Assembly (NCBI RefSeq): GCF_020169335.1
Contig: NZ_JAIEZN010000001.1
Span: 1,133,426-1,197,425, forward strand
Source of the DNA: Devosia aquimaris
GTDB taxonomy: Bacteria > Pseudomonadota > Alphaproteobacteria > Rhizobiales > Devosiaceae
DNA: 64,000 nt
Reading direction: 5' to 3'
The notes under the pieces are model-generated. The model was given only the letters and a program-made list of their open reading frames with translations. It was not told the DNA's origin and searched no databases. The stretch's first letter is position 1; every line of letters starts with the position of its first letter. Shown in pieces: positions 13,247 to 24,948 of this stretch. The position numbers and the translations under genes were made by a program.

Positions 13247-14032
13247 TCAGTCGGCGGCAACCGGGACCTTCTTGAACAAGCGGTAGAAATTGGCCGACGT
13301 CGTGGTGCCCAGATCAGCCATGGAAACCTTGCGCAAATCGGCCAGCAATGTCGCGACGTCGAGCAGCCGGATCGGCTCATTGCGCTGATCCTGGTCCGGG
13401 GCGGGCGCCAGGGACGGGGAGTCTGTTTCAAGCAGGATGCGGTCGGCGGGAACGCTGGCGGCAATCTCCCGCATCTGATGATTGTCCGGATAGGTCAGCA
13501 GCCCGCCGAATCCAAGGTAGCCGCCCAGGCTCAGCGCCGTTTCTGCCAGGACCGGCCCGCCGGAGAAGGCGTGCACGACAAAGGGGAACGCGCCCTGACG
13601 CGTGCCTTCGCGCAGCATATCAGCCATGGCCTCATCCTGGCGGACCGAGTGGATTACCAGGGGCATCTGGGTCTGCCGCGCTGCATCGATGTGGGCCCGG
13701 AAAACCGCGATCTGCGCGTCCCAGGAAGCATTGCCGAAGAAGGTGTCGAGGCCTGCCTCTCCGATCCCAACCACCTTGGGGTGGTGGGTATGCGCAACGA
13801 TCTCGGCTGCTGTCACATCATGCTCGTCGTCGGCGTGATGGGGCAGGGTGCCCACCGTGCAATAGACATCCCGATAGGCTTCGGCGACGGCCAGCACGCG
13901 CGCAAAATCGCGGACACGGATGCCGATGGAGACGAACCGGCCGACCCCGGCCGCCTGCGCCCGCTCGATCACGGCTGCGCGGTCGGCGGAGAACTCGTCG
14001 AAATCGAGGTGCAAATGGCTATCGATGAACAT
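13247..14032 (-). CDS. tatD: TatD family metal-dependent deoxyribonuclease
   Basis: TIM-barrel metal-dependent hydrolase of 261 residues from ATG at 14032. The N-terminal metal motif is DSHLHLDF (HxH), the bridging Glu is in GIGEAGLDTF, and further ligands appear in PLVIHSVRQDE, VVHAFSGG and LLETDSPSLAP. This is the complete TatD/YcfH set. It is spaced well away from the histidine-kinase gene and probably has its own promoter. The substrate (DNA 3' ends or D-aminoacyl-tRNA) cannot be decided. Confidence 0.92.
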   Translation of the reverse strand: MFIDSHLHLDFDEFSADRAAVIERAQAAGVGRFVSIGIRVRDFARVLAVAEAYRDVYCTVGTLPHHADDEHDVTAAEIVAHTHHPKVVGIGEAGLDTFFGNASWDAQIAVFRAHIDAARQTQMPLVIHSVRQDEAMADMLREGTRQGAFPFVVHAFSGGPVLAETALSLGGYLGFGGLLTYPDNHQMREIAASVPADRILLETDSPSLAPAPDQDQRNEPIRLLDVATLLADLRKVSMADLGTTTSANFYRLFKKVPVAAD

Positions 14033-14155
14033 GGCAGTGGGTATCCGGGAGACTGTCGGGCGGCGAGATCGGCTTGATGATGACACCTAGCATGGCCCAT
14101 GCCGATTGGCAGATGCACAAGGCACATGGCAAGTCTGCAGCGGGGCTCGTGCCGC

Positions 14156-15493
14156 CTAAACAGTGCTGGCGCTCCAGTCCAGACTGACTTCGAAGCCGTC
14201 TGTCTGGCCAGCTCTTGGCGACGCCAGCCGCATCCGTCCCCCGGTCTGCTGGACGATAGCATCGACAATTGCCAGGCCCAGCCCTGTCCCACTGGCGCCG
14301 GTTTCCCCGCGAGCAAAGCGCGTCCCCAGTTGCGACAGGACCTCTGGTGGCACCACGGCGCCTCGATTTCGCACGATAATGATCGGGCCAGGCAGCGCCG
14401 TGATCTCGACAGGTCCGCCTTGCTGGCCATGCAGCAAGGCGTTCTGGATCAGATTGCGCAGCGCGATCGCAAAGGCATCGGGATTGATGCGCGTCTCGAG
14501 CTGTACGTTCTCGGCGGCGCTGAACGCCACCCGCCCGGCTGTCGCCTTTGCGGTCTCGAAATCCCGCACCACCAGATCAATGATCGGCCGCAGGGCGACG
14601 GGGTCGTCCGACCGCGCGAACCCCGCTTCAAGCCGCGCCAGCTGCAGAAGCTTCTCGGACAAGAGCGAGAGGTGGCGCAACGCGCGCTCGATCTCCTGCA
14701 CCCGCGCACTCGCGGGGTGCGTGCCCAGTTCCAGTGCCAGCCTCTGGGTCTGTGCCAGGGCGCCGGCAAGGGGCGTGCGCAGTTCGTGCGCACTATTGGC
14801 CGCAAAGCTCCGCTCGGCGTCCATGGCACCCTTGAGGCGGTCGAGCAGGGCGGTGACCTCACTGGCGATCGGCGCGAGCTCTATGGGCTGGCCGGCGGCG
14901 TCGAGCGGCGCCAGATTGCCACTGTCACGCAGGGCAACATCACGGGAGAACCTGTTGATGGGCTGCATGCCTAGCCGAACGACACCCCAGATGCCGACAC
15001 CGAGGAGCGGGACAAGCGCCACCAGCGGCCAGAAGAGAGTGCTTGCAGCATCAACCAGCGCATCCTGCCGGTGGTTGGACATTTCCAGCACGACAATGCT
15101 CAATCCGCTGCGGCGGTCGCTGATCGAAAAGGCCCGCCGACCGTCGACATCGCTGAAGCCGGTGGAGGTGGGCAGAGTGGTGACGTTCTCAGGCGCGTCC
15201 TCGGCGCGCAACAGGATGCGCCCCTTGCCGTCATGCACAAAATAGGTGAAGGCGCTGTTTTCGGGCTCATCCAGGCGCCGCACAGTTTCACGGCGTTCTT
15301 CCGGCTCGCGCAGGTCGTGCAGGGCCAACGGCAGCAGGCGATAGGCGCTCTGACTCAGGCTTTCGTCAAAGGCCTCCTGCAATTCGTGCTGCAGCACCGT
15401 CGTCGACACCGCCGCCGCGCCGACCCAGAAGACCCCGATGACCAGCGTCAGCAGGAGCGCCAGGCGCAAGGCTATGGACGACGGGCGCCTCAC
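14156..15493 (-). CDS. Two-component sensor histidine kinase (QseC/PmrB-like)
   Basis: Inner-membrane sensor of 445 residues. TM1 lies at about residues 8-30 and TM2 at about 155-175, enclosing a periplasmic sensor of some 125 residues. HisKA carries the phospho-His in SAHELRTPLAGA, followed by N-box NLIQNALLHG and G-box GTGLGLAIVDAI. The start overlaps the response-regulator stop (ATGA). Its divergent neighbours are the DUF2271/PepSY-reductase operon, which it most likely controls; similar kinases respond to cations, metals or redox compounds. Confidence 0.92.
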   Translation of the reverse strand: MRRPSSIALRLALLLTLVIGVFWVGAAAVSTTVLQHELQEAFDESLSQSAYRLLPLALHDLREPEERRETVRRLDEPENSAFTYFVHDGKGRILLRAEDAPENVTTLPTSTGFSDVDGRRAFSISDRRSGLSIVVLEMSNHRQDALVDAASTLFWPLVALVPLLGVGIWGVVRLGMQPINRFSRDVALRDSGNLAPLDAAGQPIELAPIASEVTALLDRLKGAMDAERSFAANSAHELRTPLAGALAQTQRLALELGTHPASARVQEIERALRHLSLLSEKLLQLARLEAGFARSDDPVALRPIIDLVVRDFETAKATAGRVAFSAAENVQLETRINPDAFAIALRNLIQNALLHGQQGGPVEITALPGPIIIVRNRGAVVPPEVLSQLGTRFARGETGASGTGLGLAIVDAIVQQTGGRMRLASPRAGQTDGFEVSLDWSASTV

Positions 15494-16146
15494 GCCGGCA
15501 CCTGGTAGCCGAGTCCGCGCAATGTGGTGACAAAGTCCTTGCCCAGTTTCTTGCGAAGGCGGCTAACATAGACTTCCACGGCATTGCTCTCGATTTCGGC
15601 GCCGAAGGCATACAGCGAGTCTTCGATGTCTGCCTTGGTCACGATGGCGCCGCGCCGGCTGAGAAGACGCTCGAGCACCGCCCATTCTCGCGCTGTCAAA
15701 GTCACCGGCTTCCCATCGAGGGTCACAATTCTTGTGGCCGTGTTGACGGCGACGCTGCCGATGGTGACCACGGGCGACGGACTGCCACCATAGCGGCGGG
15801 CAACGGCTGCCAGCCGGGCCGACATTTCGCTGAGGTCATAGGGCTTGACCAGATAGTCATCTGCGCCAGCATTCAGGCCCTCGATCCGGACCGCTATCTG
15901 GTCCTGCGCAGTGCTGATGATGACAGGCACATCATTGCCTTTGGCCCTGAGCCCGCGCAACAGGTCGAGGCCGCGTCCATCCGGCAGGTTGAGGTCAAGA
16001 AGCACCAGTTGATAGGCAACGGTGTCCAGCGCCGCACGCGCATCGTCCAGACGCTGCATCCAGTCCACGCCGTGGCCCTCGGCCGCAATGTGATCGCGGA
16101 TGGCTGCGCCCAGCACGTGGTCGTCTTCGATCAACAGAATGCGCAC
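15490..16146 (-). CDS. OmpR-family response regulator
   Basis: DNA-binding regulator of 218 residues. Receiver domain (1-115) has acidic pocket EDD (7-9), phospho-acceptor Asp in LVLLDLNLPDG (about residue 51), Ser/Thr in IISTA and Lys in LVKPYD. The C-terminal winged helix (about 125-216) ends VEVYVSRLRKKLG...LRGLGYQVPA, as in OmpR/PhoB proteins. Cotranscribed with the kinase and divergent from 16279. Confidence 0.94.
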   Translation of the reverse strand: MRILLIEDDHVLGAAIRDHIAAEGHGVDWMQRLDDARAALDTVAYQLVLLDLNLPDGRGLDLLRGLRAKGNDVPVIISTAQDQIAVRIEGLNAGADDYLVKPYDLSEMSARLAAVARRYGGSPSPVVTIGSVAVNTATRIVTLDGKPVTLTAREWAVLERLLSRRGAIVTKADIEDSLYAFGAEIESNAVEVYVSRLRKKLGKDFVTTLRGLGYQVPA

Positions 16147-16278
16147 GGATCACTCTCCCCCGCGCCTCTCTATTAGCCCAAGCTGACACCAGGCTGAAGG
16201 ATGAAAGCCTCGCAGTTCAGGCTGGCGTCAGGAACGCATGGGACAAGCAGTGCAATTCCAACGCATTGGAGCTGTGCC

Positions 16279-16752
16279 ATGCTCAAGAAACTCACCGCCG
16301 TATTGCTTTTGGCAACCGCCTTTTCGGTCCCCGGCGTCGCCTATGCCAAAGACGCCACTCTGGCCATTCGGATGACGGGATACCAGGGGCCGCCGGCCTA
16401 TCTGGCGGTCTACCTCACTAAGCCCGACGGCAGCTATGACTCGACGCTCTGGGTGGCTGGGACGCAGTCCAAATACTACCGCCATCTGCGCGGCTGGATT
16501 CAGGGCGTATCGGGCTCAGGCGAGCGACTGGACGGGATCACCGGCGCCAGCGTTGGCAGCGGTCGCACCATGGAAGTGGGCATCACCATCGCTGACGCCC
16601 TGATTGACGCCGGCTACACCATACATGTCGACAGCGCTGTTGAGCACGGCGCGGAAAACCAGGACGACGTCGTTCTGCCGCTGACATCGGCGAACTCGGG
16701 AACCGTGGTCTCGGGCAGCGGCTATATCTCGGCCATGGCCGTCACCTTCTAG
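16279..16752 (+). CDS. DUF2271 periplasmic protein with putative covalent FMN site
   Basis: Small exported protein of 157 residues, starting at the ATG at 16279 with GGAG 7 nt upstream. A Sec signal (MLKK, hydrophobic core, VAYAKD cleavage region) covers residues 1-23. Residues 85-91 read DGITGAS, which fits the ApbE flavinylation consensus (Asp, x, x, Thr/Ser, Gly, Ala, Thr/Ser), with Thr88 the predicted FMN ester site. It is first in an operon with a PepSY reductase and ApbE, so I infer a periplasmic flavoprotein receiving electrons from the reductase. A C-terminal beta-rich part is typical of DUF2271. Confidence 0.82.
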   Translation: MLKKLTAVLLLATAFSVPGVAYAKDATLAIRMTGYQGPPAYLAVYLTKPDGSYDSTLWVAGTQSKYYRHLRGWIQGVSGSGERLDGITGASVGSGRTMEVGITIADALIDAGYTIHVDSAVEHGAENQDDVVLPLTSANSGTVVSGSGYISAMAVTF

Positions 16753-16768
16753 GATCGGGAGGTTCGGC

Positions 16769-18982
16769 ATGATCCGTCGTTTCCATTCCCTGGCCGGGCT
16801 CGCCGCTGGCGTGATCGTCGCCTTGATGGCCATCACCGGCGCGGTGCTGTCTCTGCAGCCGGTGCTGGATCACCTGGCCACGCCGTCATCGGGCAGCATG
16901 AGCGTGGCCGCTTTGGCCGAGGCGGTGTCCGCCCAGCTGCCGGGCGTGACGCGGATCACCCACGCCGCCTCCGGCGCAATAACGGCCTATTACGATGCTG
17001 GGGCAGGAGAGCTGGCGGCGAGCATCGATCCAGCCACAGGCAATGTTCTGGGAGCAACCGCGCCGTCGCCGGTGTTCGCCTTCTTTACCGAGCTGCATCG
17101 CTCCTTGTTTCTCAACATGAATGGGCGGGTTGCGTCTGGTCTTGCGGCCCTGGCCATCACCGTGCTGTCGGTGAGCGGCCTGGTCCTGCTGGCCAACCGG
17201 CTGGGCGGGTGGCGCAAACTGTTCACCACCGCCAAGGGGACTCTGTCGCAGCGCCTGCATGTCGAACTGGCCCGCATGGGCGTGCTCGGGCTGATTGTGA
17301 GCGGCGCCTCGGGCATCGCCATGTCGCTCAACAGCTTTGGCCTGCTGCCCGGCACCGATGCGCCAATGACGGCCTTTCCCAGCAATGTCGACGGCGGCAC
17401 GCCGGCCGCGATCAGCACACTGTCAGCGCTCCAGGGGCTGGACCTCTCCAGCCTGCGCGAACTCACGTTTCCCTATCTCGGCGATGTCACGGACGTTTTC
17501 AGCGTCATCACGGCCAATGGCCAGGGCTATGTCGACCAGGGCACGGGCGCCTGGCTGAGTTTTACCCCCAACGGCCTGGGTCAGACCATCTATGAGACCA
17601 TCTACATGCTGCACACGGGGCAGGGGCTGTGGTGGTTCGGCGCGCTGCTGGGCCTGGCATCGCTGTCCGTGCCCGCTCTGGCCATCACCGGGGGCCTGAT
17701 CTGGTGGGTTCGACGCCGCAACCAGCCGCGGCTGGTGGGCAATGTCCCGGCACGCCACGCCGATACCATCATTCTGGTGGGCAGCGAGGGCAATTCGACC
17801 TGGGGCTTTGCGACCACGCTGCACGCAGCCCTGACCCAGGCCGGCCACAAGGTTCATGCCGCTGCCATGAACAGCCTTGCCGCCAGCTATCCTTCGGCGC
17901 GCCAGATCCTGGTGTTGACCGCCACCTATGGCGACGGCGCCGCGCCCGCCTCTGCGCGCAACTTTGCCGCCCGCCTGCGCCACTTTACGCCCGTGCCGGG
18001 CCAGCGCTTTGCCGTGTTGGGATTTGGCGACCGCAGCTTCGCCCAGTTCTGCCACTTCGCCGAAGAGACCCAGCAGGCCATGCTGGACCGAGGGCTCAAG
18101 CAGCTACTGACCTATGAGAGCATCGACCGCCAGTCGGCCCAGAGCTTTGCCAAATGGGGCAATGACCTGGGCGCTGCCCTGGGGCACGAACTGACGCTTG
18201 TCCATGCGCCCGTGGTGCCGGTGACAAGCACGCTGGCGCTGCTCGACCGCACCGATTTTGGCACCGAGGTGCAGGCGCCCACGGCGGTGCTCCGCTTTGC
18301 ATTGCCTGCGGGGGAGGTCGGCCTGATCGATCGCCTCCTGGGCCGGACGCAGGCGCTGCGCTTCGAGCCGGGCGATCTGGTCGGCATCGTGCCACCTGGC
18401 GAAACCATCCCGCGCTACTATTCGCTGGCGTCGTCGTCGCGCGACGATGTGCTGGAGATCTGCGTGCGCAAGGTGTCGGGCGGCGTGTGCTCGGAATTCC
18501 TGCATGGGCTGGAGCCGGGCCAGACAATCTCTGCCTTCATCAAGCGCAACCCCGATTTCCGGCCGCAGCCGGGCCGCGCCCCGGTCATCCTCATCGGCGC
18601 CGGGACGGGCATCGGTCCGCTCGCCGGCTTTGTCGATGGCAACCGTCGGCACCAGCCCTACTACCTCTATTTCGGTGGCCGCGACCCGGCATCGGACTTC
18701 CTCTATGCGCCCCTGTGGCGGGCGGCACTGGCCGATCATCGGCTGGCCGGCCTGGCGACCGCCTTTTCCCGGGTTGTGGGCGGCCGCTATGTCCAGGACA
18801 GCGTGCGCGAAGACGCCGCCAATATTCGCAAGCTCGTGGCCTCGGGTGCGCAGATCCTGGTCTGCGGCGGGCGCGACATGGCCGCCGGCGTCCGCGACAG
18901 CATCGATTATTGCCTGGCCCCGGCGGGCGAAACCGTCACCGGCCTGCGGGCAAAGGGCCGCTACCTCGAGGACGTGTACTGA
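16769..18982 (+). CDS. PepSY-membrane / flavodoxin / FNR fusion reductase
   Basis: Trans-membrane flavin reductase of 737 residues. Four TM segments (about 8-30, 122-143, 169-190, 286-314) enclose PepSY-like periplasmic parts; His110, His164 and His282 near the helices are candidate haem ligands. Residues 333-475 form a flavodoxin (FMN) domain starting VGSEGNSTWGFA. Residues 495-737 form an NADPH-ferredoxin-reductase module with FAD motif RYYSLAS (549-555), nucleotide motif GAGTGIGP (610-617) and CGGRDM (699-704). The layout resembles the reductase half of sulfite reductase or cytochrome P450 reductase joined to a PepSY membrane anchor. It should carry electrons from NADPH through FAD and FMN to a periplasmic acceptor, probably the DUF2271 protein. 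Confidence 0.88.
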   Translation: MIRRFHSLAGLAAGVIVALMAITGAVLSLQPVLDHLATPSSGSMSVAALAEAVSAQLPGVTRITHAASGAITAYYDAGAGELAASIDPATGNVLGATAPSPVFAFFTELHRSLFLNMNGRVASGLAALAITVLSVSGLVLLANRLGGWRKLFTTAKGTLSQRLHVELARMGVLGLIVSGASGIAMSLNSFGLLPGTDAPMTAFPSNVDGGTPAAISTLSALQGLDLSSLRELTFPYLGDVTDVFSVITANGQGYVDQGTGAWLSFTPNGLGQTIYETIYMLHTGQGLWWFGALLGLASLSVPALAITGGLIWWVRRRNQPRLVGNVPARHADTIILVGSEGNSTWGFATTLHAALTQAGHKVHAAAMNSLAASYPSARQILVLTATYGDGAAPASARNFAARLRHFTPVPGQRFAVLGFGDRSFAQFCHFAEETQQAMLDRGLKQLLTYESIDRQSAQSFAKWGNDLGAALGHELTLVHAPVVPVTSTLALLDRTDFGTEVQAPTAVLRFALPAGEVGLIDRLLGRTQALRFEPGDLVGIVPPGETIPRYYSLASSSRDDVLEICVRKVSGGVCSEFLHGLEPGQTISAFIKRNPDFRPQPGRAPVILIGAGTGIGPLAGFVDGNRRHQPYYLYFGGRDPASDFLYAPLWRAALADHRLAGLATAFSRVVGGRYVQDSVREDAANIRKLVASGAQILVCGGRDMAAGVRDSIDYCLAPAGETVTGLRAKGRYLEDVY

Positions 18983-18983
18983 G

Positions 18984-19934
18984 ATGGATCGCCTTGCCCT
19001 CAATGGCCCCACCATGGGCACCCGCTGGTCGGCCGTGTTCTCCGCGTCCAAGGCTGAGCAGACAGGTCTGACCGAGGCCCTGCAGGCGGCGGTCGACGCC
19101 GTCGACGACACCATGTCGACCTGGAAGCCGGACAGCGCGCTCATGCGGCTCAACCGGACGCCGCCGGGGACGTGGATGCCGGCGTCCCCGCAGCTCTGCG
19201 CGATCATGGCGCTGAGCCTGCAGATCGGCCAGGCCTCGCAGGGCGCGTTCGACATCGGCGTGGGCGAAACTGTCAATGCCTGGGGCTTCGGTGCCGCCCG
19301 GGCTGAGCCGGATAGTGGAGCTATCGCCTCCCTGCATAGCCAGCAGTCGGCGGACGGCGCGGTGGAGGTCGACATGGACGGCGGGCGGCTCCGTCGGCTG
19401 CACGACGTCCAGCTCGACCTCTGCGGCATTGCCAAGGGCCATGGCGTCGACTGTCTGGCCGAGGTTCTGCTGGCGCATGGCATCGAGAGCTTTGTCGTCA
19501 GCATCGACGGCGAGGTGCGGGCGCGCGGAACGCGGCCCGACGGCAGCGGTTGGCTGGTGGGACTCGAACGCCCCGAGCGCGACAAGCGCGTCCTGGCCCG
19601 CACGATCGCCGTCAGCGACCTGGCCATGGCGACCTCGGGCGACTATCGCCAGTTCCGCCGCCATGGCGACGCCGTGGTGTCGCACACAATCGATCCGCGC
19701 AGTGGCGCGCCACTGCAAAGCGCAGTCTGTGCCGTGACCGTGACGGCCGAACATTGTGCCGCCGCAGACGCCTGGGCCACCGCATTGATGGTGCTGGGCG
19801 AAGCGGCCGGTCCGGCGATGGCTGCAGAGCAGGGGCTCGACGCCCTCTTCACCCTGCGCCGACCAGAAGGACTGCATGATATCGGCGTCGGCGCATTTGC
19901 CGCCCTGAGCACCCACACAACAGGAGGACTTTGA
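18984..19934 (+). CDS. apbE: FAD:protein FMN transferase
   Basis: ApbE-type flavin transferase of 316 residues that attaches FMN from FAD to a Thr/Ser of target proteins. The start ATG at 18984 follows the reductase stop by 1 bp. Family landmarks are DDTMSTW (41-47), CGIAKGHGVD (147-156), SIDGEVRARG (173-182), ATSGDY (216-221), HTIDPRSG (234-241) and the metal site region ADAWATALM (261-269). No signal peptide or lipobox is present, unlike many ApbE proteins, so it may act in the cytoplasm before export of the target, or the family member is exported differently. The nearby DUF2271 protein is the likely substrate. Confidence 0.9.
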   Translation: MDRLALNGPTMGTRWSAVFSASKAEQTGLTEALQAAVDAVDDTMSTWKPDSALMRLNRTPPGTWMPASPQLCAIMALSLQIGQASQGAFDIGVGETVNAWGFGAARAEPDSGAIASLHSQQSADGAVEVDMDGGRLRRLHDVQLDLCGIAKGHGVDCLAEVLLAHGIESFVVSIDGEVRARGTRPDGSGWLVGLERPERDKRVLARTIAVSDLAMATSGDYRQFRRHGDAVVSHTIDPRSGAPLQSAVCAVTVTAEHCAAADAWATALMVLGEAAGPAMAAEQGLDALFTLRRPEGLHDIGVGAFAALSTHTTGGL

Positions 19935-19935
19935 A

Positions 19936-20457
19936 GTGACGCAGACCCGGACCGACGGCTACGCGCCGATACAGATCGGCTTGCACTGGCTGATGGCAGC
20001 CATGGTGCTGTTCCAGCTCATCTTTGGAGAGAGCATGGCCGAAGCCACGGAGGCCGCCGAAGAAGGCGAAGCTTTGAGCAATGGCGACGCCATTCTGGCG
20101 ACAGCGCACTATTGGGTCGGGGTGGCCATCCTGGTCCTGGTGGCGGCGCGATTGATTGTGCGCCTGCGCTATGGCGCACCAGCCCCGCTCGACAGCAATC
20201 CCTTGATGGTGGCGGCAAGCAAGGTGACCCACGGTCTGTTCTACCTGCTGCTGGTCATTGTCCCGATTTCGGGCCTGGTGGCCGTCCATCTCAATCCTGA
20301 GGTCGGCGAGATACACGAGCTCGCCAAGCCGGCTTTCATTCTGCTGATCCTGGTGCATGCCGGCGCGGCGCTCTTCCACCATTTTGTCCTCAGAGACCGA
20401 ACGCTAGTGCGTATGCTCGCACCGACAAAAGCGCGCACCGACAGTCCGTCGGCGTGA
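19936..20457 (+). CDS. Cytochrome b561 family protein
   Basis: Membrane di-haem cytochrome b of 173 residues, GTG start preceded by AGGAGG at 8 nt. Four TM helices with the usual His positions: IGLHWLMAA in helix 1, ATAHYWVGVAI in helix 2, KVTHGLFYLLL in helix 3 and LVHAGAALFHHFVLRD in helix 4. Last gene of the DUF2271 operon; 1 bp after apbE. It could exchange electrons between quinol and the periplasmic flavoprotein or pseudoazurin. Confidence 0.9.
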   Translation: MTQTRTDGYAPIQIGLHWLMAAMVLFQLIFGESMAEATEAAEEGEALSNGDAILATAHYWVGVAILVLVAARLIVRLRYGAPAPLDSNPLMVAASKVTHGLFYLLLVIVPISGLVAVHLNPEVGEIHELAKPAFILLILVHAGAALFHHFVLRDRTLVRMLAPTKARTDSPSA

Positions 20458-20601: not shown

Positions 20602-21042
20602 GTGTTTGCTTTCAAAGCCGCTGCGGTTGCAGCTCTCGCCCTTCTGGCCACCCCAGTGTTCGCCGCCAATTTCGAAGTCCACATGCTCAACAAGGGCGCT
20701 GATGGTCAGACAATGGTCTTTGAACCGGCGCTGACCAAGGTCGCGGTCGGCGACACGGTCACCTTCCTCCCCACCGACAAGGGCCACAACGCCGAAACCA
20801 TCAAGGATATCCTTCCCGCCGGCGCAGAACCGTTCAAGGGCGCCATCGGCAAGGAAGTGGTCGTGACCTTCACGGTGCCGGGCGCCTATGGCGTCAAATG
20901 CACGCCGCATTTCGGCATGGGCATGGTTGCGCTCATCGTGGTGGGTGATGAGCCCGTGGACGCGGAGGCCATCAAGGCGGTCAAGATGGCCCCAAAGACC
21001 CACGAACGCATGGAAGCCATTCTGGAGCAGCTCGAGCACTGA
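20602..21042 (+). CDS. Pseudoazurin (type I blue copper protein)
   Basis: Periplasmic electron carrier of 146 residues with GTG start. Signal peptide residues 1-22 (cleavage near VFAAN). All four type-1 copper ligands are present: His62, Cys100, His103 and Met108, which in mature numbering are 40, 78, 81 and 86, exactly as in characterised pseudoazurins. It usually donates electrons to copper nitrite or nitrous oxide reductase; none is in this window. The FNR-type box upstream and the hairpin terminator downstream make it a single-gene low-oxygen transcript. Confidence 0.95.
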
Positions 21043-21086
21043 CGCGCGGGCCGTCACCCGGCCTGGCGTTCAGACGCAAGAATGAC

Positions 21087-21115
21087 AACGGCCCCATTCG
21101 GGGCCGTTCTTTTTT
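21087..21115 (+). terminator. Rho-independent terminator after pseudoazurin
   Basis: AACGGCCCC / GGGGCCGTT stem of 9 bp with an ATTC loop, followed by CTTTTTT. Textbook intrinsic terminator, 45 bp after the pseudoazurin stop. Confidence 0.92.
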
Positions 21116-21142
21116 GTCCTGATGCCTACGGTGGCCCAAAGA

Positions 21143-21166
21143 ACCCCTGCGCTTTTGCGCAGGGGT
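21143..21166 (-). terminator. Stem-loop after hemN
   Basis: ACCCCTGCGC / GCGCAGGGGT, perfect 10-bp stem with TTTT loop, 8 bp after the hemN stop on the minus strand. The minus-strand tail is TCTTTGGG, so termination is plausible but the T-run is weak. Confidence 0.65.
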
Positions 21167-21173
21167 CCGGCAA

Positions 21174-22517
21174 CTAGACAGCCTTTGAGTAGCGGGCCGT
21201 GTCCTGTGCCAGATAGGCGTCGAAGCGTGCCGCATAGCTGCGGACAAAGGGGCGGCCGGCAGCGGTCACCTCCATGACGCCGGGCCGCATGGTGATGTGA
21301 CCGTTCTGGTCTTCCATAGCCATGGCCACGGCCTCGCAGATCACCGGTTCCGCGGCGCCGCCGAAGCGTTGGCGCAGCGCGTTGAAATCCACCTGGAAGT
21401 CACACATCAGCCGCTCGATGGCATAGCCCCGCAACCTGTCATCGTCTGTCAGGGCAATTCCCTTCGCCACGGTGCCTTCGCCGGACAGCGCCCGCCGCTG
21501 GTAGTCGCCGGTTGCAACCACATTCTGGATATAGCCCTGCGGCAGGCGTCCGATCGCAGAAGCCCCGAGCCCGATCAGCGCATCATGTTCGTCGACGGTG
21601 TAGCCCTGGAAGTTCCGCTGCAGCGTGCCATCGACGGCAGACTTGGCCATGCTGTCGTGGGGCAGGGCGAAGTGGTCAAAGCCGATGCTGACATAGCCAG
21701 CCGCGCGAAGAACATCGGCTGCGGCATTGGCCTGGGCAAAGCGCGCCTGGCTGTCGGGCAGGCTGGCCTCCTCGATCATGGTCTGGTGCTTCTTGATCCA
21801 GGGAACATGTGCATAGCCGAACAGGGCCACGCGATCGGGACGTAGCGACACCACCTGACGGGCCGTGGACGCCGCGCCTTCGATCGTCTGGTGGGGCAGG
21901 CCATAGAGCATGTCGATATTGACCGAGCCGACGCCGCGGCTGCGCATGGCATCGACCACAACCTTGGTCTGTTCAAAGCTCTGCAGCCGATTGATAGCGA
22001 CCTGGACCTTTGGATCGAAGTCCTGGACACCGATGCTGGCGCGCGTCAGTCCGGCAGCAGCCCAGGCGTCAAACTTGGCGTCTTCCATGTCGCTGGGATC
22101 CAGCTCGACGCTGAACTCGGCGGACGGGGTGACGTTGAACACGCTGCGCAGCAGGGCAGTCACCTGGGCAATGTCGTCCGCCGCTAGCAGCGAGGGCGAG
22201 CCGCCACCCCAGTGAATGGCGGTGACCGGTCGATTGCCGACAATACCGGCAATCCGCACGATCTCCGCTTTGAGCGCCTCAAGATATTGCGTAACTGGCG
22301 CGTAACGATTGATCTGCTTGGTGTGGCAGCCGCAAAACCAGCACAGCCGGTCGCAGAACGGCAGATGGAGATAGAGCGAGACCCGGGCATCCGGTGCAAG
22401 CTCCGCCAGCCAGGCCTCATAAGTCCGCTGGTCGATGCCGGCGTGGAAATGCGGGGCCGTGGGATAGCTGGTGTAGCGCGGCACGGGCTTGGTCAGATGG
22501 GCGAGTGAATCGGACAT
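21174..22517 (-). CDS. hemN: Oxygen-independent coproporphyrinogen III dehydrogenase
   Basis: Radical-SAM enzyme of 447 residues that makes protoporphyrinogen IX without oxygen, supplying haem for the neighbouring cbb3 oxidase. The start ATG at 22517 has GGAG 7 nt upstream. Cluster ligands sit in C55-x3-C59-x2-C62-x-C64, the HemN form. GGGSPSLL, the SVELDP strand and RVALFGYAHVPW are further HemN blocks. It is last in the minus-strand cbb3 cluster and has its own FNR-type box inside the end of ccoS. Confidence 0.94.
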   Translation of the reverse strand: MSDSLAHLTKPVPRYTSYPTAPHFHAGIDQRTYEAWLAELAPDARVSLYLHLPFCDRLCWFCGCHTKQINRYAPVTQYLEALKAEIVRIAGIVGNRPVTAIHWGGGSPSLLAADDIAQVTALLRSVFNVTPSAEFSVELDPSDMEDAKFDAWAAAGLTRASIGVQDFDPKVQVAINRLQSFEQTKVVVDAMRSRGVGSVNIDMLYGLPHQTIEGAASTARQVVSLRPDRVALFGYAHVPWIKKHQTMIEEASLPDSQARFAQANAAADVLRAAGYVSIGFDHFALPHDSMAKSAVDGTLQRNFQGYTVDEHDALIGLGASAIGRLPQGYIQNVVATGDYQRRALSGEGTVAKGIALTDDDRLRGYAIERLMCDFQVDFNALRQRFGGAAEPVICEAVAMAMEDQNGHITMRPGVMEVTAAGRPFVRSYAARFDAYLAQDTARYSKAV

Positions 22518-22547
22518 TGGCGTTCTCCAGTGTCCCACTGCTAGGGC

Positions 22548-22730
22548 CTAGTTGCCGCCCCTGCCTTGACCTCGGTCAATGTTCTCCAATGGCTCGTCAT
22601 TGAGCAGCACGCGCTGACCATCGCCTTCGAGATCGTCATACTGTCCGCTGCGCAACGCCCAGAAGAACGCGAGCAGGGCGAGCGCGCCCAGGCCAATCGC
22701 GCAGGGGATGAGAATCAGGAGTCCACTCAC
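22548..22730 (-). CDS. ccoS: cbb3 oxidase maturation protein CcoS
   Basis: Small membrane protein of 60 residues needed for cofactor insertion in cbb3 oxidase. One TM helix (about residues 3-22), followed by WALRSGQYDDLEGDGQRVL, the diagnostic CcoS/FixS motif. The start is GTG at 22730 with GGAGG 7 nt upstream; that ribosome site spans the stop codon of ccoI. Its last codons contain the FNR-type box that serves hemN. Confidence 0.92.
   Translation of the reverse strand: MSGLLILIPCAIGLGALALLAFFWALRSGQYDDLEGDGQRVLLNDEPLENIDRGQGRGGN
22566..22579 (-). promoter_or_regulatory. FNR/FixK-type box for hemN, inside ccoS
   Basis: TTGACCTCGGTCAA within the final codons of ccoS, encoding the IDRGQ part. 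The centre lies about 55 bp upstream of the hemN ATG. A class II geometry puts transcription near 22531, giving a very short leader. Confidence 0.75.
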
Positions 22731-22734
22731 GCAC

Positions 22735-24948
22735 TTACCTCCGGCTGGCCGCAAATTCGGACGGCCCGGCGCCCAGGCGCAGCCGCAGGGCATTGAGCAC
22801 AACGATGACCGACGAGCTCGACATGGCAATGGCCGCAACCAGCGGCGTCACATACCCCAGGATCGCCAGGGGCAAGACGACGGCATTGTAGGCGACGGCA
22901 AAGCCGAGATTCTCGCGAACCAGCCGATCGGCCCGACGGGCAACCGATACCACAAACGGCACGCCTGTCAGCTTGTCATTGGTGAGGATGAAGTCTGCCG
23001 CGGCCCGGCCGATATCGGCGGCACTGGCTGGCGCTATCGAGACATCGGCAGCCCGTAGGGCCGGCGCGTCATTGATGCCGTCGCCAACCATGAGCACGGC
23101 GCCATGGTCGCGGCGAAGGTCGGCAATGGCCGCCTGCTTCTGCTCCGGGGTCAGGCCCGCCAGCCAATTGGTGGCGCCCACCGCGTTGGCCACGTCGGCC
23201 ACGGCGGCCCCGCGATCGCCGGACAGGACATGCACCGGAACGCCCAGCCGAGCCATGCCGGCAACGGCCGCGGACGCATCGCTGCGCGGGGCATCGCGGA
23301 AGAAGAACTGGGCCACCGGCTGGCCATCGCGTGCCAGCCAGACATGGCTGGCGCTGTCGCCATCCTTGTCTTCGGCATTGCAAAAGGCAGCACTCCCCAG
23401 CTTCCAGTCAGCATTCCCGATCTGCGCCGAGACACCCTTGCCCGGCACTTCGGTCACGGCGATGGGGTCGACGTTCAGGTGCCCCTCTGCCTCTGCGGCA
23501 GCGGCGATGGCGCGGGAGAGCGGGTGGTTGCTCTGCGCCCCCAGTCGGGCCGCAACTGCCAGCAGTGCAGGATCGTCGGGCTCTTGCCGCACCAGGCGTG
23601 GCGTGCCCAGTGTCAAGGTGCCGGTCTTGTCAAAGGCAGCGACCCTCACAGCGCCCATGCGTTCCAGCGCCGAGCCCTCGCGCATCACGACGCCATTTGC
23701 GAACAGGCGGCCAGCTGCCACGACATGGACGATCGGGACCGCCAAAGCCAGGGCACAGGGGCAGGTGATGATCAGAACGGCAACGGCATTGAGCAATGCG
23801 GCGTGCCAGCCCGCTCCCATGACGAGCCAGCCCAGGAAGGTAATGGCCGCCGTCAGATGCACTACGGGCGCATAGAGCTGCGCGGCCCTGTCAGCAATGC
23901 GGCGGTATCTGGTTCGGGTGTCCTCTGCCGCTTCGACATAGGCCTGCATCCGCGCGAGAAATGAATCGCGGGCCGGGCGGGCAGCAACGATCTCCAGCGA
24001 GCCAAGAAGATTGATGGCGCCGGCAGGCAGGCTCGTGCCGGGAGACGCAGCCAGGGGGATCGACTCACCATTGACCATGGCCATATCGATCTGTCCGTTG
24101 CCGTCGACCACCGTGGCGTCGACCGGCACGCGCTCGCCGGCCTTGAGGGCAAATCGCATGCCCGGCACGATGTCAGCCAGGCGGACAAACGCGACGGTGC
24201 CGTCATCGAGCAATTGATAGGCCCCGCGCGGCGACAGACGGGCAAGATTGTCGACCGCACTGCGCGCCTGCTTGCGCATCATGTGGTCAAGGGTCCGCCC
24301 CGCCAGCAGGAAGAACAGCAGCATCGTGGAGGCATCGAAATAGGCATGCTCGCCGCCGGTCACCGTCTCGAACAGGCTCAGCGCCGTGGTCAGGGTGACA
24401 CCGATCGAAATTGGTACGTCCATATTGGTCCGCCCGACGCGCAATGCCGACCAGGCCGACCGGAAGAATGGCCGCCCGGCATAGACAATTGCCGGCAGCG
24501 CCAGAAGTGCCGAGAGCCAGTGGAAGAGGGCGCGGGTCGCCTCGTCTGCGCCGGCCCAGACCGACACCGAGAACAGCATGATATTGCCGGCGGCAAATCC
24601 GGATACGGCCAGCGCGCGGACCAGTTCGGTCAGAGCGGCGTCGTGCTGGGGATCGACCGTGGCGTCCACCGGAAAGTTCCGATAGCCGCTGCGGGTGATG
24701 TGCCCGGCAAAGCCGCTGACGTCGGCCGACTGGTCATAGCGGATGAGGACGCGCCGCTGTGACAGGTTCACGCGGGCGCTGCGCACCCCCGCGACATTGG
24801 TCAATTCCCCTTCGATTGCCTGGATGCAGGCTGCGCAATAGGCGTCCGGCACGGCAAAGCAAATCTCGCCAGTGCCATCAGCAGCATAGGCGATGAAGGG
24901 ATCAAGCTCGACTGGCGCGGCGCCCGCTGGCGCCGTCAAGGTTGTCAA
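22735..24948 (-). CDS. ccoI: Copper-transporting P1B-type ATPase for cbb3 assembly
   Basis: CcoI/FixI copper exporter of 737 residues delivering Cu for subunit CcoN. N-terminal heavy-metal domain with C38-x2-C41, eight TM helices, metal site CPC in IITCPCALALAVP, phosphorylation site DKTGTLT, and hinge GDGINDAPAL. The start is a TTG at 24948 that overlaps the ccoH stop (TTGA); a downstream ATG would delete the metal domain. Its gene order ccoG-H-I-S is standard. Confidence 0.93.
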   Translation of the reverse strand: MTTLTAPAGAAPVELDPFIAYAADGTGEICFAVPDAYCAACIQAIEGELTNVAGVRSARVNLSQRRVLIRYDQSADVSGFAGHITRSGYRNFPVDATVDPQHDAALTELVRALAVSGFAAGNIMLFSVSVWAGADEATRALFHWLSALLALPAIVYAGRPFFRSAWSALRVGRTNMDVPISIGVTLTTALSLFETVTGGEHAYFDASTMLLFFLLAGRTLDHMMRKQARSAVDNLARLSPRGAYQLLDDGTVAFVRLADIVPGMRFALKAGERVPVDATVVDGNGQIDMAMVNGESIPLAASPGTSLPAGAINLLGSLEIVAARPARDSFLARMQAYVEAAEDTRTRYRRIADRAAQLYAPVVHLTAAITFLGWLVMGAGWHAALLNAVAVLIITCPCALALAVPIVHVVAAGRLFANGVVMREGSALERMGAVRVAAFDKTGTLTLGTPRLVRQEPDDPALLAVAARLGAQSNHPLSRAIAAAAEAEGHLNVDPIAVTEVPGKGVSAQIGNADWKLGSAAFCNAEDKDGDSASHVWLARDGQPVAQFFFRDAPRSDASAAVAGMARLGVPVHVLSGDRGAAVADVANAVGATNWLAGLTPEQKQAAIADLRRDHGAVLMVGDGINDAPALRAADVSIAPASAADIGRAAADFILTNDKLTGVPFVVSVARRADRLVRENLGFAVAYNAVVLPLAILGYVTPLVAAIAMSSSSVIVVLNALRLRLGAGPSEFAASRR

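What the first reader, a model, noticed from the sequence alone, without database searches (positions are those of the whole stretch)
16279..20457. Flavinylated trans-membrane electron-transfer module with its own two-component system
Four tightly linked genes encode an exported DUF2271 protein with a candidate ApbE site (D85-GITGAS-91), a 737-residue PepSY membrane/flavodoxin/NADPH-reductase fusion, ApbE and cytochrome b561. Seen: motifs, domain order, gene spacing. Known: ApbE covalently attaches FMN at Dxx(T/S)GA(T/S) in Rnf/Nqr-type and other exported proteins. Inferred: NADPH electrons pass FAD, FMN and a haem-bearing membrane part to a periplasmic FMN protein, then on to an unknown acceptor. 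A divergent kinase/regulator pair suggests a specific inducing stress. The terminal acceptor is not described by anything in the sequence.
Basis: partly seen in the sequence, partly recalled or inferred. Interest (0 to 1): 0.78.

Follow-up and report, generated by a model that had tools for sequence, protein, structure and literature searches.

The report
Switchable flavin-haem electron relay across membrane
A Devosia gene cluster encodes proteins predicted to carry electrons from NADPH across the inner membrane to an exported protein that likely carries a covalently bound flavin and would reduce iron or another metal outside the cytoplasm, and next to it lie a sensor-regulator gene pair and a paired DNA motif, conserved in relatives, that likely switch it on.

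Summary
A Devosia locus carries an exported DUF2271 protein with D85-GITGAS-91, a 737-aa PepSY/flavodoxin/FAD-NAD(P) fusion, ApbE and cytochrome b561, divergent from an OmpR/QseC-type two-component system. The kind is known: PepSY-like flavinylated systems with DUF2271 as ApbE substrate (Meheust 2021).

New here: (1) a distinct branch of that kind, with its own kinase subfamily near 88 of 109 relatives and 10 of 13 such loci in a DUF2271 sampling, but none of that subfamily near 51 other-branch loci. (2) A conserved operator, CTGAC-N6-CTGAA: its core is in 93 of 96 TCS/module upstream regions (control mean 2.3, max 7); its strict form occurs twice in the 3.81-Mb genome, both here. (3) Relatives carry VIT-family genes (33 of 109) and a sensor with ExxExxD after TM1, hinting at iron. 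(4) ApbE lacks a signal peptide (0 of 104 in this branch) although its presumed target is exported.

The pseudoazurin next door is probably not part of it. Electron flow, FMN attachment, operator function, signal and acceptor remain untested.

The parts
14156..15493 (-). Sensor histidine kinase (QseC/heavy-metal-sensor type, 445 aa); juxtamembrane H36-E37-x-x-E40-x-x-D43 after TM1
   Evidence: Pfam HisKA+HATPase_c, NCBIfam QseC best hit below cut-off; D43 in 88 of 88, E37 in 80, E40 in 66 linked kinases
15490..16146 (-). OmpR-family response regulator (PmrA/QseB type, 218 aa)
   Evidence: Pfam Response_reg+Trans_reg_C; best NCBIfam PmrA and QseB, both below cut-off; best PDB BasR
16183..16198 (+). 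Predicted operator box 1, CTGACACCAGGCTGAA (11-bp direct repeat, reads toward the module)
   Evidence: 93 of 96 relatives have CTGA-N7-CTGA; one of only two strict matches in the genome; coordinates
16216..16231 (-). Predicted operator box 2, CTGACGCCAGCCTGAA on the minus strand (reads toward the regulator)
   Evidence: second of the two strict genome matches; start-to-start spacing of cores 34 in 35 of 61 loci with both boxes
16279..16752 (+). Exported DUF2271 protein, 157 aa, predicted FMN carrier; candidate FMN site Thr88 in D85-GITGAS-91
   Evidence: AF2 mean pLDDT 86.2
16531..16551 (+). Codons of DGITGAS, the ApbE target motif
   Evidence: [T/S]GAS in 107 of 109
16769..18982 (+). PepSY_TM / flavodoxin / FAD-NAD(P) reductase fusion, 737 aa
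   Evidence: Pfam; AF2 mean pLDDT 87.9; diflavin reductase fold; FoxB 7ABW relative
18984..19934 (+). ApbE FMN transferase, 316 aa, no signal peptide
   Evidence: Pfam ApbE E 3.3e-74; starts MDRLALNGPTMGT, about ten residues before the MGT motif; only ApbE match in the genome
19936..20457 (+). Cytochrome b561 (Ni_hydr_CYTB), 173 aa; accessory, b561 genes near 18 of 109 related loci
   Evidence: tally; a b561 gene also lies opposite a paralogous TCS with its own box (L329)

Best explanation
The locus encodes a PepSY/DUF2271 flavin-haem relay that is predicted to pass electrons from NADPH through FAD, FMN and membrane haem to an FMN that ApbE likely attaches to exported DUF2271, which would then reduce periplasmic iron or a similar metal, and it lies beside a two-component gene pair with a paired CTGAC-N6-CTGAA motif that likely switches it on. 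Shown by calls: gene content, domains, conserved motif and histidines, fold of the reductase half, linkage of one kinase/regulator subfamily, and the conserved motif pair whose strict form is unique in this genome. Inferred: cofactors, electron direction, that the response regulator binds the boxes, that the signal is a metal (best guess Fe2+), and that iron is the acceptor. The likely sense is a response to metal excess in the envelope rather than Fur-type starvation, because relatives put VIT-family genes or heavy-metal P-type ATPases beside it. ApbE lacks an export signal, so FMN would be attached before DUF2271 leaves the cytoplasm, unless ApbE leaves by an unknown route.
Against: No expression, binding or chemical data. 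The window locus has no VIT gene; the genome's only VIT match is MbfA on another contig. VIT is missing from 76 of 109 loci and ApbE from 24 of 109. With up to 2 mismatches the box pattern matches 142 places in the own genome against 78 for the reversed control, so weaker sites elsewhere are not excluded. 11 of the 54 strict boxes in other genomes lie away from the module and 9 of these 11 have no evident link. 18 of 47 genomes have no strict box at the held locus. The profiles used for the tallies were built from the same loci, and some loci are near-identical, so counts are not independent. The kinase control is small and partly mis-framed (n=13), and 31 of 88 kinases lack ExxExxD by that test. 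A Sec-exported protein flavinylated before export would be unusual. L111 has Ala at the FMN site yet keeps DUF2271, fusion and TCS.
Confidence: 0.55

Rival explanations
1. Assimilatory ferric reductase: the module reduces Fe(III) so that Fe(II) can be taken up, as proposed for PepSY-like clusters in general.
For: Meheust 2021 (PMC8238504, passages read) proposes it and reads VIT1 as an uptake route; Caulobacter CCNA_03155-03159 (PepSY, DUF2271, DUF4198) is a Fur target needed under EDTA (PMC12004947, passages).
Against: The DUF4198 and TonB genes seen in three examined loci belong to the other branch, which has no VIT, P-type ATPase or TCS of these profiles in 51 of 51 loci. VIT and MbfA proteins move iron out of the cytosol in the studied cases (recalled; PMC4902296 seen as search listing and start of abstract only).
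Confidence: 0.22
2. Envelope oxidation or copper response: the relay feeds a periplasmic repair reductase, as MsrQ feeds MsrP.
For: The kinase also scores against heavy-metal (CztS/SilS/CopS) sensors, below cut-off; ferric-reductase-like (MsrQ-type) genes lie near 21 of 109 loci.
Against: None of the six recurrent unassigned neighbour clusters printed looks like a repair reductase by eye (no MsrP profile was searched); VIT association points to iron or manganese.
Confidence: 0.15
3. Respiratory branch: electrons go to the neighbouring pseudoazurin and on to the cbb3 oxidase whose maturation genes follow.
For: Pseudoazurin 20602-21042, then hemN and a CPC-type P-type ATPase (taken as CcoI), lie immediately downstream.
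Against: Pseudoazurin is in 34 of 41 Devosia genomes, the module in 20 of 61; in 7 of 7 Devosia pseudoazurin loci fetched no DUF2271, fusion or ApbE was found; among the 109 loci only the window and its sister genome pair them; the next closest Devosia locus, L381, shows no pseudoazurin.
Confidence: 0.06

Closest known systems
PepSY-like flavinylated system with DUF2271 (Meheust et al. 2021, PMC8238504; passages read)
   Same: PepSY membrane protein, DUF2271 with [S/T]GA[S/T], ApbE; some clusters there also hold VIT1 (167) or MsrQ-like proteins (108)
   Different: This branch has its own kinase/regulator and operator and no DUF4198/TonB arrangement in the window; 'histidine kinase' and 'response regulator' have 0 occurrences in that main text and 'two-component' one, in a reference
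FoxB (Pseudomonas aeruginosa PepSY reductase, PDB 7ABW)
   Same: PepSY_TM relative with conserved histidines
   Different: Here fused to a cytosolic diflavin reductase and paired with a DUF2271 protein
BqsRS/CarRS and PmrAB (iron-sensing OmpR-type systems)
   Same: Direct-repeat box with 11-bp period (BqsR: TTAAG-N6-TTAAG, PMC4682146 passages); ExxE after TM1
   Different: Box sequence differs (CTGAC/CTGAA), strict boxes lie only at this locus in the own genome, and the signal is untested
Diflavin reductases (CysJ, NADPH-P450 reductase)
   Same: FMN and FAD/NADPH domains and fold
   Different: Fused behind a PepSY membrane domain

Membership tests
PepSY-like flavinylated system | PepSY_TM protein encoded in a cluster with ApbE/DUF2271, at least one with a signal peptide | tested here: met
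   PF03929 E 1.3e-35, PF10029, PF02424; hydrophobic signal-like N-terminus on DUF2271 (hydrophobicity only, no SignalP)
PepSY-like flavinylated system | [S/T]GA[S/T] ApbE target motif on DUF2271 | tested here: met
   DGITGAS; [T/S]GAS in 107 of 109 relatives
PepSY-like flavinylated system | FMN covalently attached by the cognate ApbE | not testable with these tools
   needs mass spectrometry; shown for another DUF2271 in PMC8238504 (passage)
Fur-type DUF2271/DUF4198/TonB iron-uptake branch | DUF4198 and TonB receptor beside DUF2271 | tested here: not met
   neither among the ten proteins of 12.8-22.5 kb scanned; seen in part of the frames scanned of other-branch loci L205, L218, L243
FoxB-like PepSY haem protein | homology to 7ABW and conserved histidines | tested here: met
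   E 5e-9, sole PDB sequence match; four invariant His
FoxB-like PepSY haem protein | bound haem b | not testable with these tools
   needs spectroscopy
BqsRS-type Fe2+-sensing TCS | ExxE in the periplasmic part of the kinase | tested here: met
   E37xxE40 in the window; ExxE anywhere in the periplasmic part in 77 of 88 linked kinases; directly after TM1 in 58 of 88 high-scoring kinases
BqsRS-type Fe2+-sensing TCS | activation by Fe2+ | not testable with these tools
   needs kinase or reporter assay; the BqsS sequence itself was not compared
Exported (periplasmic lipoprotein) ApbE | N-terminal signal peptide | tested here: not met
   none in the window; 0 of 104 in this branch reach the hydrophobicity cut

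The most novel reading that the evidence does not exclude
A metal-excess branch of the PepSY/DUF2271 systems: an Fe2+-sensing kinase turns on a flavin-haem relay that keeps iron reduced in the periplasm while VIT and P-type pumps push it out of the cell, and its FMN carrier is flavinylated in the cytoplasm by a signal-less ApbE and then exported with the flavin attached.
Probability: 0.25. Interest if true: 0.78.

Novelty: new variant of a known kind. Interest (0 to 1): 0.55.

Why it matters
PepSY-like flavinylated clusters were counted in about 3,000 genomes (PMC8238504, passage) and are read mainly as iron-assimilation reductases. A branch with a dedicated two-component system and a recognisable operator gives a direct handle on what induces it, and suggests that some of these relays answer metal excess. 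The operator can help to annotate this branch in other genomes. A flavin transferase without an export signal, facing an exported target, makes the question of where extracytosolic proteins receive their flavin directly testable.

Tried and rejected
Pseudoazurin as the dedicated acceptor: rejected as likely, because it lies apart from the module in other Devosia.

Strict RExxE at the first place I suspected (R62-E63-P-E-E66): not conserved in register (alignment); the conserved acidic set is E37/E40/D43.

A regulon beyond the locus: no strict box outside the intergenic region in the own genome, but four places with one mismatch, and 142 with up to two against 78 for the reversed control, so weaker sites are open. 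In other genomes 11 of 54 strict boxes are off the module. All 11 were fetched: 2 precede paralogous TCS copies (L326, L329); 8 lie within or at the end of open frames; L400 lies in a doubtful frame upstream of a UspA-like one. I first counted 9 off-locus and mended this to 11.

ApbE without a signal peptide as a mark of this branch alone: rejected. Unfused ApbE of the other branch also mostly lacks one: 4 of 28 with a located motif reach the cut. Two of those four (L212, L254) hold DUF2271 in the same ORF by profile, L251 looks fused by its C-terminus, and L217 is not fused. L253, fused, scores just under the cut.

Tat export of a folded flavoprotein: an RR pair was flagged near the hydrophobic stretch in 12 of 109 DUF2271 proteins and not in the window, so not a general answer.

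DUF2271 structure: no PDB match at E 0.001 or better by Foldseek, so it gave no hint of function. FoxB did not appear among the VIA-align rows shown, which the reductase half filled.

Repeat periods other than 11 were also above expectation in the first scan (12: 23 versus 4.3; 14: 17 versus 3.7; 9: 9 versus 3.8); for the CTGA core only the N7 spacing stands out.

Literature: 10 searches. No paper found that describes this TCS-linked branch or its operator: PepSY + two-component + ApbE: 2 papers, one Meheust, the other not opened; DUF2271 + response regulator: 1 paper, not opened; 0.
Full report
What is there. The genome is a Devosia: a same-genus genome (G179) has the same coordinates as the record Devosia sp. 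FKR38 (L061), 81% identical over the fusion. DUF2271 starts at 16279; an upstream in-frame ATG at 16201 exists but would put codons across operator box 2. Gaps between the four genes are 16, 1 and 1 nt. The genome gives one DUF2271 match and one ApbE match.

Two branches. L038 duplicates L061, so 109 are counted. Near the module: HK 88, RR 87, DUF2271 109, ApbE 85, small PepSY_2 protein 89, VIT 33, P-type ATPase 22, ferric-reductase-like 21, b561 18. Of the 22 ATPases, four (window, L061, L071, L107) were nearest to CcoI, leaving 18. This set is biased to close relatives, the profiles were built from it, and some loci are near-identical (for example L032, L033 and L075). As a wider check I took the over-cut-off DUF2271 hits of two overlapping samplings of 289 and 349 genomes that were not already held: 64 loci. 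They split by score to the branch profiles: 13 of this branch, with HK and RR in 10, and 51 of another branch with no HK or RR at 250 bits or more and no VIT, b561 or P-type ATPase match. Lower-scoring kinase or regulator matches (up to 164 bits) lie in 7 of the 51. In three of the 51, part of the frames was scanned with Pfam: two show DUF4198 and two a TonB receptor, the arrangement known from Fur-regulated iron acquisition (PMC8238504, PMC12004947; passages).

The switch. Upstream regions of the regulator in 96 loci (one dropped, L060, no start found) show an excess of exact 6-mer direct repeats at period 11 (63 observed, 4.5 expected). The shared core is CTGA-N7-CTGA, in 93 of 96; random 160-bp pieces of the same loci, which are mostly coding, give a mean of 2.3 and a maximum of 7 over 200 draws; other spacings from N3 to N12 occur in 0 to 3 loci. 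The consensus is CTGAC-R-NN-A-R-S-CTGAA. 61 of 96 loci have boxes in both orientations; 35 of the 61 are spaced 34 bp start to start, 9 (Pseudomonas) 19, the rest scattered from 23 to 90. In the window the boxes are 16183-16198 (+) and 16216-16231 (-). The strict pattern occurs twice in the 3.81-Mb genome, both here; with up to two mismatches there are 142 matches against 78 for the reversed control, so weaker sites elsewhere are possible. In 47 genomes with the module the strict pattern occurs 54 times, in 31 genomes, versus 3 for the reversed pattern. 43 of the 54 lie in the held module loci, in 29 of the 47 genomes. Of the 11 others, 2 stand before a second copy of this TCS, one of which faces a b561 gene; the other 9 have no evident link. 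Inside Devosia, 20 of 61 genomes hold the module. Of 19 loci fetched besides the window (a partial hit in G835 was left out; L385 is the contig of L062), the 17 with the TCS all have the core box at the regulator's upstream side, and the 2 without a TCS (L398, L399) have none in 18 kb. The spacing is that of the BqsR box (TTAAG-N6-TTAAG, PMC4682146 passages) and of PmrA boxes (recalled).

The signal and the acceptor. The linked kinases share E37 (80 of 88), E40 (66 of 88) and D43 (88 of 88) just after TM1. ExxExxD directly after TM1 is found in 57 of 88 kinases scoring above 450 bits, 2 of 5 between 250 and 450, and 0 of 13 lower-scoring ones; the control is small and some of its segments are not true juxtamembrane stretches. 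An ExxE (or ExxxE) in the periplasmic part is shared by iron-sensing kinases, and Glu48 of BqsS is needed for Fe2+ binding (PMC12666569, section 5 read in full). VIT genes lie in 10 of 19 Devosia loci, directly behind the kinase in 7. VIT proteins in studied cases move iron out of the cytosol (recalled), and the own genome has the exporter MbfA elsewhere. I therefore favour metal excess, iron first, as the trigger and iron as the acceptor; the window locus itself has no VIT, and uptake cannot be excluded.

The ApbE puzzle. In this branch no ApbE shows a hydrophobic export signal: 0 of 104 with a located motif reach the cut (117 matches; 13, the window among them, had no locatable motif in the stop-to-stop frame; the window was read directly), whereas 105 of 109 DUF2271 proteins pass the same kind of test. 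The same is mostly true of the other branch, so it is not a branch mark. In the passages I saw of the ApbE review (PMC12052999) cytosolic ApbEs are mentioned for intracellular fumarate reductases. FMN attachment before export is an inference from N-termini; no signal-peptide predictor was run.

Neighbours not included. Pseudoazurin (20602-21042) is in 34 of 41 Devosia genomes, and none of 7 such loci fetched shows DUF2271, fusion or ApbE. TatD (13247-14086), which follows the kinase, takes the place where other Devosia have VIT.

Verdict. A real, well-defined locus of a known kind, in a branch with a dedicated switch that I did not find described. Electron relay likely, two-component control likely, iron as target plausible but untested.

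Noticed in passing
L032 (NC_021819.1 16514-42727), L033, L034, L035: The branch travels on plasmids typed conjugative or mobilizable by PLSDB; on a Salmonella plasmid it lies within 15 kb of mcr-9.1 and a second QseBC-like pair.
   Followed up: no
L329 4001; L326 4001: Second copies of this TCS subfamily with their own strict operator box; the one in L329 lies opposite a cytochrome b561 gene.
   Followed up: partly
L111, L063: Natural changes at the FMN site (AGAS, TGGS) in clusters that keep the fusion gene; L111 has no ApbE nearby.
   Followed up: no
L212, L251, L253, L254: Long ORFs of 492-529 aa with an ApbE match and an export-signal-like N-terminus; DUF2271 found in the same ORF by profile in L212, L253 and L254, and suggested by the C-terminus in L251.
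   Followed up: partly
L034 7127-7483, L035 7112-7468: Small proteins with signal-like N-termini and runs of aspartate, related ones near 21 of 109 loci; no Pfam match for the L035 protein. Possibly metal-binding.
   Followed up: no
window 20602-24948: Pseudoazurin, hemN and a CPC-motif P-type ATPase with a small CcoS-like frame: a likely cbb3 oxidase maturation neighbourhood (the cco names are by recall).
   Followed up: partly
L384 3037 and 6976: Two extra strict operator boxes in one Devosia locus, away from the divergent promoter.
   Followed up: no
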